Part shown: positions 6,998 to 14,330 of the stretch, piece by piece
Position numbering within the stretch: the first letter of the stretch is position 1
Layout of the letters: every line of letters starts with the position of its first letter
Assembly: GCF_001660815.1 (NCBI RefSeq)
Contig: NZ_LYMI01000005.1
Location: 52,635 to 116,634 of the forward strand
Source: Xanthomonas nasturtii
GTDB taxonomy: Bacteria > Pseudomonadota > Gammaproteobacteria > Xanthomonadales > Xanthomonadaceae
Reading direction: 5' to 3'
Length of the DNA: 64,000 nucleotides
The notes under the pieces: model-generated
Database searches by the model: none
What the model saw: the letters and a program-made list of their open reading frames with translations, nothing else
What the model was told of the DNA's origin: nothing
Position numbers and translations under genes: made by a program

Positions 6998-8098
6998 TCA
7001 AAAGAGCTGCGCTTGGAACCCTGTGGATCGGGGTGCTACGAATCGCGTGCAATCAAGGTGGGGCATCCGGCCATAGCCGAGTCGACGATAAGCCTTCTGA
7101 AAGCGCGTCTGCAGTAGCTGGGCGAAGGGTCCCTCACCTGTCATGCGCGTACCAAAGCGACTGTCGTAATCCTTTCCTCCACGCATTTGCTGGATCAGGC
7201 TCATAACGTGCTTGGCCCGAGTAGGATAGTGCAGCTCAAGCCATTCTCGCCAAATCTGCGTCAGCTCATGAGGCAGCCGCAGCAGCGCAAAACCACCCGA
7301 TTGGGCGCCTTGATCTTTGGCGGTTTCAAGGATCTGCTCCAGTTCATTGTCATTGATCATGGGGATAACTGGAGCGATGAGAACGCCCACCGGCACACCA
7401 GCATCGCTTAGCGCCTTCATGGCCCGCAGTCGGGCATGAGGAGCCGCAGCACGTGGCTCCATCTTGGCCGAGAGACGGTTGTCGAGCGTGGTGATTGAAA
7501 AGTGCACCGACACCAGCCCTTCGTTGGCCATCTTCTGATAGACATCCAGATCGCGCTCCACAAGCGCTGACTTGGTTACCAGGCTCACTGGATGCTTGGT
7601 TTCTGCGAGCACCTCAAGGCAGGCCCGAGTGATGCCAAGACGGCGCTCTGTTGGCTGATATGCGTCGGTATTGATACCCAGCGCAATCGGTGTGCATTGA
7701 TAGGCCCGCTTGGAAAGCTCAGCTCGAAGCAGTTCTGCCGCGTTAGGCTTGGCAAAGATCTTCGTCTCAAAGTCCAAGCCAGGGGAGAGATCCAGGTAGG
7801 CATGGGACGGACGGGCGAAGCAGTAAACGCATCCATGCTCACAACCCTTGTAGGGATTCACGGACTGAGAGAAACCAATGTCCGGGGAATGGTTGCGGCT
7901 GATGATGGTTTTGGCCCGTTCTTCCCTCACGGATGTCTGCGGACGCCCACCTTGGTCTTCGTAGACCGAACCCCAGCCGTCATCCACGCCTAACGTAGTG
8001 ACAGGTGAGAAACGCCCGGCCACGTGAGAAGCCGAGCCCCTGCCTTTGATGGGAGCCTTCGGTGTCAAGGCATCCGTCTCTTCACCATCCCAAATCAC
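6998..8098 (-). CDS. PA0069-family radical SAM protein, island-borne complete copy
   Basis: A 366-residue radical SAM protein with the cluster-binding motif CVYC inside NPYKGCEHGCVYCFARP at about residues 83-99. The family (COG1533, related to spore photoproduct lyase SplB) has no settled function. The protein aligns along its N-terminus with the broken host copy at 14037-14330: both have IKGRG, VDDGW, IISRN and SPDIGFSQSVNPY. Its codon choice and base composition look unlike the host fragment, so the whole gene appears to have come with the island. A 20-bp near-palindrome lies 16 bp upstream of its start. It probably replaces the disrupted host gene, although it could be cargo with its own role in DNA modification or repair. 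Confidence 0.85.
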   Translation of the reverse strand: MIWDGEETDALTPKAPIKGRGSASHVAGRFSPVTTLGVDDGWGSVYEDQGGRPQTSVREERAKTIISRNHSPDIGFSQSVNPYKGCEHGCVYCFARPSHAYLDLSPGLDFETKIFAKPNAAELLRAELSKRAYQCTPIALGINTDAYQPTERRLGITRACLEVLAETKHPVSLVTKSALVERDLDVYQKMANEGLVSVHFSITTLDNRLSAKMEPRAAAPHARLRAMKALSDAGVPVGVLIAPVIPMINDNELEQILETAKDQGAQSGGFALLRLPHELTQIWREWLELHYPTRAKHVMSLIQQMRGGKDYDSRFGTRMTGEGPFAQLLQTRFQKAYRRLGYGRMPHLDCTRFVAPRSTGFQAQLF

Positions 8099-8114
8099 AA
8101 CGCGCCCCTGTATT

Positions 8115-8134
8115 TGTTAGCATTAATACTAACA
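8115..8134. promoter_or_regulatory. 20-bp near-palindrome upstream of the radical SAM gene (possible operator)
   Basis: TGTTAGCATTAATACTAACA is a palindrome with one mismatched pair (9 of 10 pairs), 16 bp upstream of the radical SAM start and between divergent genes. It looks like a dimeric repressor site. The TTAG...CTAA ends recall LexA-type boxes of Xanthomonadaceae, but the half-site spacing differs from the LexA site I remember, so no regulator is named. Confidence 0.45.
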
Positions 8135-8339
8135 CGTTCAAAAAGATCAAATTCATACCCTGATCCGAGCTTTTTTGCACAAGGGGACATGCGCACCGGT
8201 CCGCCAGGCTCAGGGGTGCGTCGCAAACCTCTATCTAGGCACAGGCAAACTCGAATATCTTGGAGGTAGCCGACGTGCGGCCGACTGGCGAACCGGACGA
8301 TAAGATTTGTCGGGAGCGTCTCTGCAAGGCGGAATGGTC

Positions 8340-12612: not shown

Positions 12613-13895
12613 TTTACGTACCCATCCAGTGCATTCATTAGATGGCGTTGAGCCTTCTCGGATAGCTCCTCTTCTAGAAGCAGGCTCGCGTTTAGGTATG
12701 TTTGTTCTGTGGTAGATCTGTTTGCATGTCCAAGAAGCGCCTGAACTTTCTTGGCCGGGTCGGGATTTCCCGCACGCGCTTCCAGGATGAAGTGCCACAA
12801 AGCAAAAGAATGTCTACAAGCGTGCGGGGACGGGATACTGTTGTTTCCGGTTTCTCCAACTGCACGTATTGCGGCGTGCCTCATTGTCTTTCTGAAGTTA
12901 TTTGCTGTTAGCGGTTGACCACGAGAATAACGAGCAACCGCATGATTGACGAAGACCTGGTTATGCTGTGCCTTTCCTTTCGAAGCGAGTAAGGCGTCGG
13001 CACGCTCGGTAGAAACATAGATGCTTAGTTCTGCCAATAGCCAAATAGGGACAATGAGTTTTCGATGCGCTCCTCCTTTTCCCATTACTTGTATGTGGCA
13101 AGCTGCAAGGGAATTCTCCTTACCGACTTTTTGAAATGGCAAATCGCTAATCTTGATTGATAGCGCCTCTGAGATCCGGGCACCGGTATTCAGCAAGAAG
13201 GCAAACAAGAGGCGATCTCGAGTCAGGACTTGCGTTTTTTCACTGGGCATCTGGCCAAGATTTTTGCTAATTGCCTCTACAAGGTCCGTGGCAATATGTT
13301 TCACCAGCGCATCTGTTGCAGGTGTCTTTGGCACTTGAACGTCCGGTGCTATGACACGCTTTTCGATTCCTCTTTGCAGGACCTTTGCGATCTTGAAGCG
13401 ATTCTTCAAACGCCCATTATTCTGCAGATAATGGAAGAGCCGCTTTGCGGTCGAGACCCGCTTGATGACCGTCCGATCTGCGTAATTCAGAGATGTCTGC
13501 GGACTCACTACGTACAACATGCTATCGGCATACTGCTGGAGAAGCTCTTCCGAAAACTCTGCAAGAGTTGTTCTGATTTCGTTGGCGAAGAGAAGGAGGT
13601 CAACCAAGTCTTCAGCGTTAGCCTTACTTGTATTGGACTGGTGGCGAAGTTTTGGCCTACCCAGCAGGCTGACGTTCTCCGAAATCAAGAAGTCATAGAC
13701 GTCGGGGATAGGGACTGACGTACGTCTATCGACTACGAAGTAGAAGCCCGCGGGAAGCGCGGCGGTAGACCCCAGCAAGTGACGCGCCTGCCCACGGGCA
13801 GGCAGAGCAACCGTTTGGGCGATCTGAGGCTGGTAGATATCCAAGACTGCTTCTCCCGGGGGCCGGAACGAAGAAATCACGGCCTTGAGGATCAT
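12609..13895 (-). CDS. Tyrosine recombinase 1 (XerC/D-like integrase) of a three-recombinase module
   Basis: A 428-residue site-specific recombinase with the full catalytic set: Arg in LLNTGARISEALS, HxxR in SPHACRHSFALW, and LLGHANRSTTEQTYL carrying the third-box His and the nucleophile Tyr. The N-terminal half should be the core-binding SAM-like domain. It is the first gene of the three-gene operon and lies about 150 bp from the island's right end at the broken radical SAM gene, as expected for the integrase nearest the attachment site. It resembles TnpA of Tn554-like elements and the first gene of RIT or GMT trios. Confidence 0.85.
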   Translation of the reverse strand: MILKAVISSFRPPGEAVLDIYQPQIAQTVALPARGQARHLLGSTAALPAGFYFVVDRRTSVPIPDVYDFLISENVSLLGRPKLRHQSNTSKANAEDLVDLLLFANEIRTTLAEFSEELLQQYADSMLYVVSPQTSLNYADRTVIKRVSTAKRLFHYLQNNGRLKNRFKIAKVLQRGIEKRVIAPDVQVPKTPATDALVKHIATDLVEAISKNLGQMPSEKTQVLTRDRLLFAFLLNTGARISEALSIKISDLPFQKVGKENSLAACHIQVMGKGGAHRKLIVPIWLLAELSIYVSTERADALLASKGKAQHNQVFVNHAVARYSRGQPLTANNFRKTMRHAAIRAVGETGNNSIPSPHACRHSFALWHFILEARAGNPDPAKKVQALLGHANRSTTEQTYLNASLLLEEELSEKAQRHLMNALDGYVK

Positions 13896-14050
13896 GCAAT
13901 CTAGCGAGCGGCCAACATCGGGCCAAGTTGAACACTCTCGACCAAGGCTTCGGGACCTAGCTTAGTTCGTTCAGTGTTCCATCTCAACGAAAGCGTTGCT
14001 AACCAACGTTCAACGCAGCCCTACGTTGTGAACACTCTACCAAAACACCA
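13896..14050. repeat. Right end of the inserted element, with clustered short direct and inverted repeats
   Basis: Between recombinase 1 and the broken host gene lie two copies of GAACACTCT exactly 100 bp apart (13930-13938 and 14030-14038), with AGTGTTC inverted at 13973-13979. Between them are three CAACG copies (13985, 14004, 14011) and two CGTTG copies (13994, 14024). They form the inverted pairs CAACG-AAAG-CGTTG (13985-13998) and CAACG-8 nt-CGTTG (14011-14028). Such clustered sites suit recombinase binding at an attachment end. Homology to the radical SAM gene starts at about 14052, so the crossover is close to 14046-14054. Confidence 0.55.
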
Positions 14051-14330
14051 TACCATGTTCGCAGCCGCGATACGGGTTGACCGATTGCGAGAATCCGATA
14101 TCCGGCGACTGGTTGCGGCTGATGATGCTGCGCGCGGTTTCCTCGGTGACCTGCGTGCGCAATGCCGGGGTAGCGAACTCGTCGCTGTCGTCGGCGTACC
14201 AGCCATCGTCCACCGCCTGCGGGGTGGTGACCTCGAATCGCCCCGGCAGGTGGCCGGTCGCACCACGGCCCTTGATCGCACTTGCCATCGCGGCATCGTA
14301 CGGCCGCAGCGTCTCACCCGCAGCGACCAC
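14037..14330 (-). pseudogene. Host PA0069-family radical SAM gene, 5' fragment cut by the island
   Basis: The frame from a GTG at 14330 encodes about 92 native residues, including SAIKGRG, AVDDGW, IISRNQSPDIGFSQSVNPY and RGCEHG, then MVFW and a stop contributed by the island. An intact protein would continue with the CVYC iron-sulfur motif, so this fragment has lost its active site and more than two-thirds of its length. Its high-GC codon use matches the flanking core genes. The related full-length gene at 6998-8098 shows where the break falls, directly after the GCEHG codons. Confidence 0.88.

What the first reader, a model, noticed from the sequence alone, without database searches (positions are those of the whole stretch)
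6998..14330. Island breaks the host radical SAM gene and brings a complete foreign homologue
The host PA0069-family gene is cut directly after its GCEHG codons (14055-14330 remains). The inserted DNA carries a full-length, divergent copy of the same gene at 6998-8098. An element that targets a conserved core gene and carries a spare copy would reduce the fitness cost of insertion. A simpler case, in which the element only supplies a new 5' end, is possible but less likely because the whole copy looks compositionally foreign.
Basis: partly seen in the sequence, partly recalled or inferred. Interest (0 to 1): 0.75.

Follow-up and report, generated by a model that had tools for sequence, protein, structure and literature searches.

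The report
Island carrying its target gene's spare
A predicted mobile island of 31.7 kb in this Xanthomonas chromosome splits a conserved enzyme gene and carries a complete, distantly related copy of the same gene, which likely takes over the broken gene's role and would make that gene a cheap place to land.

Summary
The host PA0069-family radical SAM gene is cut after its GCEHG codons; its missing 3' half lies 31.7 kb away, beyond the window's left edge; the inserted DNA holds a full-length copy only 65% identical to it. The island is GInt-like: three recombinase-like genes plus a small gene, here on the opposite strand.

The pattern recurs. Among 395 family genomes searched, all 6 with a related GinA are inserted at the same codon and 5 carry a full spare. 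Three more insertions at that codon have lost most or all recombinase genes but keep an intact spare (these were found with the spare as query). Spares come from at least two gene lineages and show purifying selection (dN/dS 0.03-0.12). In 9 of 9 insertions the island's edge closes the native frame with a stop at the same position. Spares have Val where the target core has Ser, so they are predicted to escape the island's own recombinases.

Best reading: a rescue cassette that likely restores the broken enzyme. Not tested: expression, activity, fitness. One insertion (G251) has no spare, and the gene is not essential. New variant of a known kind.

The parts
14053..14330 (-). 5' half of the native PA0069-family radical SAM gene, cut after GG of the fifth codon of GCEHG
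   Evidence: 3' half found at G000:C5:34192-35007
14037..14052 (-). island's right edge: completes the Gly codon and adds four codons and an in-frame stop (T ATG GTG TTT TGG TAG)
   Evidence: same stop position in 9 of 9 insertions
1..14052 (.). the part of the 31,684-bp island that lies in the window (the other 17.6 kb is to the left, G000:C5:35003-52634)
12609..13895 (-). ginA-like tyrosine recombinase, 428 aa
   Evidence: Pfam PF00589 E 4.9e-20; profile matches gene 1 of the pUP202 set
10816..12612 (-). ginB-like gene, 598 aa from the likely start (the longest frame starts at 12798)
   Evidence: profile matches gene 2 of the pUP202 set, E 7.7e-75; no integrase match in Pfam
8764..10812 (-). 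ginC-like gene, 682 aa
   Evidence: profile matches gene 3 of the pUP202 set, E 5.1e-134; weak Phage_integrase match in 4 of 4 members, best E 0.0068
8307..8774 (+). orfD, small ginD-like gene (likely start at 8340), on the strand opposite to ginABC and convergent with ginC
   Evidence: profile matches gene 4 of the pUP202 set, E 1.4e-25
8116..8133 (.). palindrome GTTAGTATTAATGCTAAC, 17 bp before the spare's start; possible operator
6998..8098 (-). complete spare PA0069-family radical SAM gene, 366 aa, with Val at the core codon where the native has Ser
5430..6656 (-). cargo: SspA/DndA-type cysteine desulfurase
   Evidence: PADLOC SspA E 3e-139, DndA E 7.5e-138
4387..5316 (-). cargo: SspB (DUF4007)
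905..4390 (-). cargo: SspC
108..908 (-). cargo: SspD (PAPS reductase domain)
14425..15885 (+). flanking host gene (cardiolipin-synthase-like by my reading), used as a marker of the native locus

Best explanation
This is a predicted mobile island of the three-recombinase (GInt-like) kind that sits inside the conserved CxxxCxxC codons of the host's PA0069-family radical SAM gene, splits that gene, and carries a complete copy of the same gene from another lineage that likely replaces the broken enzyme. Shown: the same insertion codon in 9 of 9 insertions; a full spare in 8 of 9; spares from at least two gene lineages, with dN/dS far below 1; an in-frame stop supplied at the same position by the island's edge in 9 of 9; an intact spare in insertions whose recombinase genes are mostly or wholly gone. 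Inferred: ginABC and orfD carry out recombination between GG and N of the GGN codon; the spare is expressed, perhaps under control of the palindrome before it; it does the native enzyme's job; and because its core reads TGC-GTN (Val) where the target reads TGC plus a Ser codon, it is a poor target for the island's own recombinases. The island could thus use a highly conserved coding sequence as a dependable landing site without leaving the host without the enzyme.
For: Native gene split at the same place in all 6 genomes with a GinA relative among 395 searched, and a full-length spare in 5 of the 6. Three further insertions at the same codon without a full gin set keep a full-length spare. Spare swapped: the gin modules of the window and X. 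pisi are 89.7% identical over 6,050 bp, the match ends between orfD and the spare, and the two spares are 65% identical. Tree: five of six native 3' halves fall with natives of their own genus, the spares elsewhere. dN/dS 0.07-0.12 among the five gin-island spares and 0.03-0.04 among G129, G287, G314. Spare 117-208 bp from orfD in 4 of 5 gin islands. Stop at the same codon in 9 of 9, using TAG, TGA and TAA. Ser in 46 of 46 natives read and in the 8 split natives with a readable right arm; Val in 9 of 9 spare cores read. Four-gene set homologous in order to that on plasmid pUP202.
Against: G251 has the split gene and no spare. The gene can be lost: 74 of 395 genomes have no match at E<=1e-40, and several Xanthomonas genomes have it in pieces. 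The gin-poor cases were found through the spare, so they do not measure how often a spare is present. Val is the usual state outside the target clade (118 of 120 nearest homologues), so the island did not recode its copy, and immunity is a prediction only. The nine insertions share ancestry and are not independent. Several dS values exceed 1, and one spare pair could not be computed. No expression, activity or excision data exist here.
Confidence: 0.72

Rival explanations
1. Hitch-hiking cargo: the second copy is an ordinary cargo gene with no link to the landing site.
For: The islands carry variable cargo, and G251 does without the copy.
Against: The genomes hold one such gene per several Mb, yet 5 of 6 islands carry one; the copy was exchanged for one of another lineage in X. 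pisi while the gin module stayed; it stays intact where the recombinases are gone.
Confidence: 0.12
2. The spare has a different job, such as a specialised or altered radical SAM enzyme useful to the island or to its defence cargo, and the shared family with the target is secondary.
For: It belongs to another clade than the native gene and has its own upstream palindrome, absent from 46 natives of the target type.
Against: It is a full-family match above cut-off, similar in length and motif to native genes of other genera, and in the gin-poor insertions it is the only intact copy left. In 11 of 35 Xanthomonas genomes a related copy is the only one, nine of them intact.
Confidence: 0.12
3. The island only supplies a new end to the native gene, and the second copy is incidental.
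For: Known for other islands, such as those in dusA (passages of PMC4482086).
Against: The copy is complete with its own stop and lies 24.6 kb from the native 3' half. The right edge ends the native 5' half with a stop. In the window's island no ATG, GTG or TTG lies in frame before the left junction: the first start in that open frame is inside native sequence.
Confidence: 0.02

Closest known systems
GInts, genomic islands with three integrases (PMC5385486: abstract, Results part 1 of 2, Discussion and passages seen)
   Same: Three recombinase-like genes and a small gene at one end, variable cargo, fixed insertion site; our four genes match in order a four-gene set on plasmid pUP202.
   Different: The D gene is on the opposite strand here (6 of 6). 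The paper says GInts insert at gene ends, 5' ends or between genes and mentions outward promoters; in the parts seen it describes no full spare of the target.
[quoted passage not shown]
   Same: Several recombinase-fold genes and a small gene at one end.
   Different: The paper separates SE and GInt proteins into different clusters; no SE protein was compared here.
Islands in dusA (PMC4482086: passages seen)
   Same: Enter a conserved protein gene and, as the authors propose, keep its function.
   Different: They supply a new 5' end, not a complete second gene.
Islands in tRNA genes (Islander, PMC4383910: start of abstract in a listing; otherwise recalled)
   Same: Insertion splits the target, and island sequence restores it.
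   Different: Restoration by a short end fragment.
Synthetic cleave-and-rescue gene drives (recalled, not searched)
   Same: Break a gene and bring a copy resistant to the breaking.
   Different: Engineered, eukaryotic, and dependent on harm to non-carriers; only the layout is alike.

Membership tests
GInt | three integrase-like genes followed by a small gene, homologous to a ginABCD-type set | tested here: met
   profiles match the four genes of the pUP202 set in order; published GInt proteins themselves were not at hand
GInt | all four genes in one operon (same strand) | tested here: not met
   orfD is reversed in all six gin islands
GInt | site-specific insertion | tested here: met
   same codon in all 6 gin islands
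GInt | flanking imperfect direct repeats of 10-11 nt or more | tested here: inconclusive
   junctions read but no clear repeat defined
GInt | all four genes needed; circular form | not testable with these tools
   needs experiment
SE / RIT elements | SE core intA-tfp-intB-srap; RIT recombinase trio | not tested
   no reference sequences were compared
PA0069-family radical SAM protein | NCBIfam NF033668 above its curated cut-off | tested here: met
   spare 495 bits, cut-off 360
PA0069-family radical SAM protein | CxxxCxxC cluster motif intact in the spare | tested here: met
   GCEHGCVYC in 5 of 5 gin-island spares
SspABCD phosphorothioation defence | SspA, SspB, SspC and SspD homologues in order | tested here: met
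   PADLOC matches for all four; SspA nearly tied with DndA; partner effector genes not looked for

The most novel reading that the evidence does not exclude
A natural break-and-rescue landing strategy: a family of islands enters the cluster-binding motif of a conserved enzyme gene, shuts the native frame with a stop built into its own edge, and carries a core-variant copy that its own recombinases cannot enter. As islands decay the rescue gene becomes the chromosome's only copy, so that whole lineages (11 of the 35 Xanthomonas genomes held here) now run on a former island gene and have lost the landing site in the process.
Probability: 0.35. Interest if true: 0.85.

Novelty: new variant of a known kind. 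Interest (0 to 1): 0.7.

Why it matters
Many integrating elements use tRNA genes or gene ends, so the target survives. This family enters the middle of a protein gene at its most conserved codons and appears to pay for that with a complete replacement. If true, it is a further way for mobile DNA to use conserved coding sequence as a safe site, a route by which a chromosomal gene can be swapped for a foreign version across a lineage, and a search rule: look for islands that carry a divergent full copy of the gene they interrupt. It also offers natural break-and-rescue pairs for finding out what the PA0069 family does.

Tried and rejected
GinA relatives in viral contigs: 31 stretches matched a pattern, none encoded a relative. 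A class-wide search (369 genomes) found only the window's own genome at E<=1e-25. Structure models of GinC and GinB were too poor to use (mean pLDDT 36 and 41), so no fold search was run. A PDB sequence search with GinC gave two chance-level hits. Pfam gave GinB no integrase match. Remnants of the native gene were sought beside the replacement copies L037-L045, L099 and L131-L133: none convincing; only L130 (G314) has one, E about 1e-8. A text search with part of the palindrome returned nothing that I judged relevant from the listing. In the genome search for the palindrome the control (pattern read backwards) also had one hit per strand at up to 3 mismatches, so its being the only site in the genome proves little. 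I considered that the island had recoded the core of its spare, and rejected it: Val is the usual state outside the target clade. I could not fetch the surroundings of the closest spare relative (P0121, X. campestris) or of a GinA relative in X. euvesicatoria pv. physalidis (P0003).
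Full report
CHECK OF THE OBSERVATION. The native PA0069-family gene runs leftwards from 14330 and its frame ends at 14037; host sequence stops at 14053, after ..GGC TGC GAA CAT GG, and island sequence follows. The genome is held (window = G000:C5:52635-116634), and the missing 3' half lies at C5:34192-35007, beyond the window's left edge (sequence). From the two junctions the island is C5:35003-66686, 31,684 bp. The flanks side by side give GAACATGG | GTGCAGTTACTGC, that is GCEHGCSYC in frame with nothing missing. The copy at 6998-8098 is complete (366 aa) and belongs to NCBIfam NF033668, 495 bits against a cut-off of 360. 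It is 65% identical to the native 3' half over 269 residues.

WHAT THE ISLAND IS. Next to the native 5' half lie three recombinase-like genes on the same strand (ginA, ginB, ginC) and a small gene, orfD, on the opposite strand, convergent with ginC. GinA has a clear integrase domain, and the residues that I take from general knowledge for the catalytic ones (R240, K273, H358, R361, H390, Y400) are invariant among nine relatives. GinC has a weak integrase match in 4 of 4 members, best E 0.0068; GinB has none in Pfam. Profiles of the four match, in order, the four genes of a set on Methylomonas plasmid pUP202 (E 6.5e-57, 7.7e-75, 5.1e-134, 1.4e-25 in a search of eight proteins), where the first gene is annotated site-specific integrase and all four are on one strand; in a second plasmid, pLA1, the first three match and the fourth does not. 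This is the organisation of GInts (PMC5385486), except that the D gene is turned round. Cargo in the window is an SspABCD-type defence set.

RELATED ISLANDS. In all six the native gene is split at residues about 93/89. Five of six carry a full-length spare; G251 does not. OrfD is reversed in all six. In four of the five the spare starts 117-208 bp from orfD; in X. pisi about 2.46 kb away. The window's Ssp genes were not found in the other islands by tblastn. DNA shared with other islands beyond gin and spare includes a stretch at island position 20.6-22.1 kb and the last 90 bp or so at the left edge (Pseudoxanthomonas), and stretches at 26.6-27.2 and 30.7-31.9 kb (X. pisi). G294 and G303 share most of their cargo with each other.

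THE SPARE WAS SWAPPED AT LEAST ONCE. The gin modules of window and X. pisi are 89.7% identical in DNA over 6,050 bp, and the match stops between orfD and the spare; their spares are 65% identical. A tree of 107 rows held 5 gin-island spares, 9 replacement copies, 19 + 27 natives, 6 native 3' halves and 41 of the 120 listed homologues; the spares of G129, G287, G062 and G314 were not in it. Five of the six native 3' halves fall with natives of their own genus; G251, whose genus was not otherwise represented, falls within the same large native clade. The window spare groups with the Pseudoxanthomonas spares, an X. campestris protein (P0121, 94% identical) and metagenome proteins (100/96). The X. 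pisi spare lies elsewhere on a long branch of weak placement.

INSERTIONS WITH FEW OR NO RECOMBINASE GENES. From the family-wide search with the spare nine genomes with unusual matches were picked by hand. In G129 and G287 the native gene is split at the same codon with both junctions readable. In G062 the 5' junction is the same and the 3' half is partly deleted. Searching these with the gin proteins of the window and of G251 found part of a GinA gene in G287 and nothing in G129 or G062. All three keep a full-length spare. In G314 a short native 5' fragment lies beside a full-length copy. The native 5' half of G129 has a frame break. Because the spare was the query, 3 of 3 is biased; 5 of 6 from the GinA search is not.

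SELECTION. dN/dS is 0.07-0.12 among the five gin-island spares (7 pairs computed) and 0.03-0.04 among the spares of G129, G287 and G314 (3 pairs), against 0.11-0.18 for gin genes of close pairs (6 pairs); one spare pair and two gin pairs were saturated. dS is above 1 in 7 of the 10 spare pairs, so ratios are rough, but all are far below 1. The native 3' halves, compared among islands, give 0.08, 0.08 and 0.22, as expected if they broke recently.

THE EDGE IS FITTED TO THE TARGET'S FRAME. In 9 of 9 insertions the chimeric codon is GGT, followed by four codons and a stop: TAG in two, TGA in four, TAA in three, with six different tetrapeptides. The nine are related and not independent trials; but the stop changes in identity and not in position, which points to selection for closing the native frame cleanly (inference).

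THE CORE DIFFERS BETWEEN TARGET AND SPARE. At the codon after the crossover cysteine the 46 native loci read in Xanthomonas (19) and Pseudoxanthomonas (27) have Ser, as do the 8 split natives whose right arm survives. The five gin-island spares have Val, as do those of G129, G287, G062 and G314. Spare and own native core differ by 1-4 bases in the left 15 (8 islands) and 2-5 in the right 15 (7 islands). No Val-type native was seen split among those examined. Val is the common state outside the target clade: 118 of the 120 listed homologues, and 17 of 19 scored loci of 20 sampled. So the island did not recode its copy; it carries one from outside the target clade. That this protects the spare is a prediction.

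AN UPSTREAM PALINDROME. GTTAGTATTAATGCTAAC lies 17 bp before the spare's start (8116-8133), the only site in the window within 3 mismatches (shuffles: mean 0.01). Versions of it precede 9 of 9 spares and 9 of 9 intact replacement copies in other Xanthomonas at up to 2 changes, 4 of 17 other close Val-type loci, 0 of 46 Ser-type natives and 0 of 20 sampled loci at up to 3 changes. It may be an operator; what binds it is unknown.

A POSSIBLE LONG-TERM OUTCOME. In 11 of 35 Xanthomonas genomes the only copy is about 71-73% identical to the window's spare, against 62-65% for intact natives; nine are intact and two in pieces. The nine intact ones lie beside the same left-hand neighbour as natives but in reversed orientation; in three of them the other neighbour is also within the fetched flank. 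With the palindrome and the Val core, they look like former mobile copies that replaced the native gene. No native remnant was found beside them, so this is inference.

HOW IT LIKELY WORKS. Shown: fixed insertion codon, broken native gene, complete and conserved second copy, fitted stop, copy kept where recombinase genes are gone. Inferred: the recombinases make the insertion; the spare is expressed and does the native enzyme's job; its core makes it a poor target. Against necessity: G251 has no intact copy, and 74 of 395 genomes have no match at E<=1e-40. The benefit would be in fitness, not survival.

NOVELTY. Elements that repair one end of their target are known (dusA islands, passages; tRNA islands). 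I saw no description of a complete, divergent spare beside the recombination module in the listings and text seen. I rate it a new variant of a known kind.

Noticed in passing
L037-L045 (nine other Xanthomonas genomes): The PA0069-family gene at the native locus is a foreign version, reversed relative to its neighbour, with the spare's palindrome and Val core.
   Followed up: partly
window 108-6656: Island cargo is an SspABCD phosphorothioation-type defence set; SspA is nearly tied with DndA.
   Followed up: partly
window 6998-8098, around residue 93: The spare also matches the NCBIfam model of intein-containing Rv2578c-family proteins in two stretches, the best starting at residue 93 at profile position 335. 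So an intein in those relatives seems to lie near the same motif that this island splits.
   Followed up: no
L034 and L095 (G251): A distant gin island at the same codon without a spare, insert about 15.6 kb.
   Followed up: partly
L131, L133, L099 (G239, G291, G095): Close Val-type copies of the gene with a version of the palindrome, in genomes whose congeners score lower against the spare; possibly further replacement copies.
   Followed up: partly
L155 (plasmid pUP202), 4515-10257: A ginABCD-like set, all on one strand, lies between traU-family and traN genes of a Methylomonas plasmid.
   Followed up: no
window 56001-57000: GC content falls to 0.50 between stretches at 0.60 and 0.72; possibly another small insertion.
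   Followed up: no
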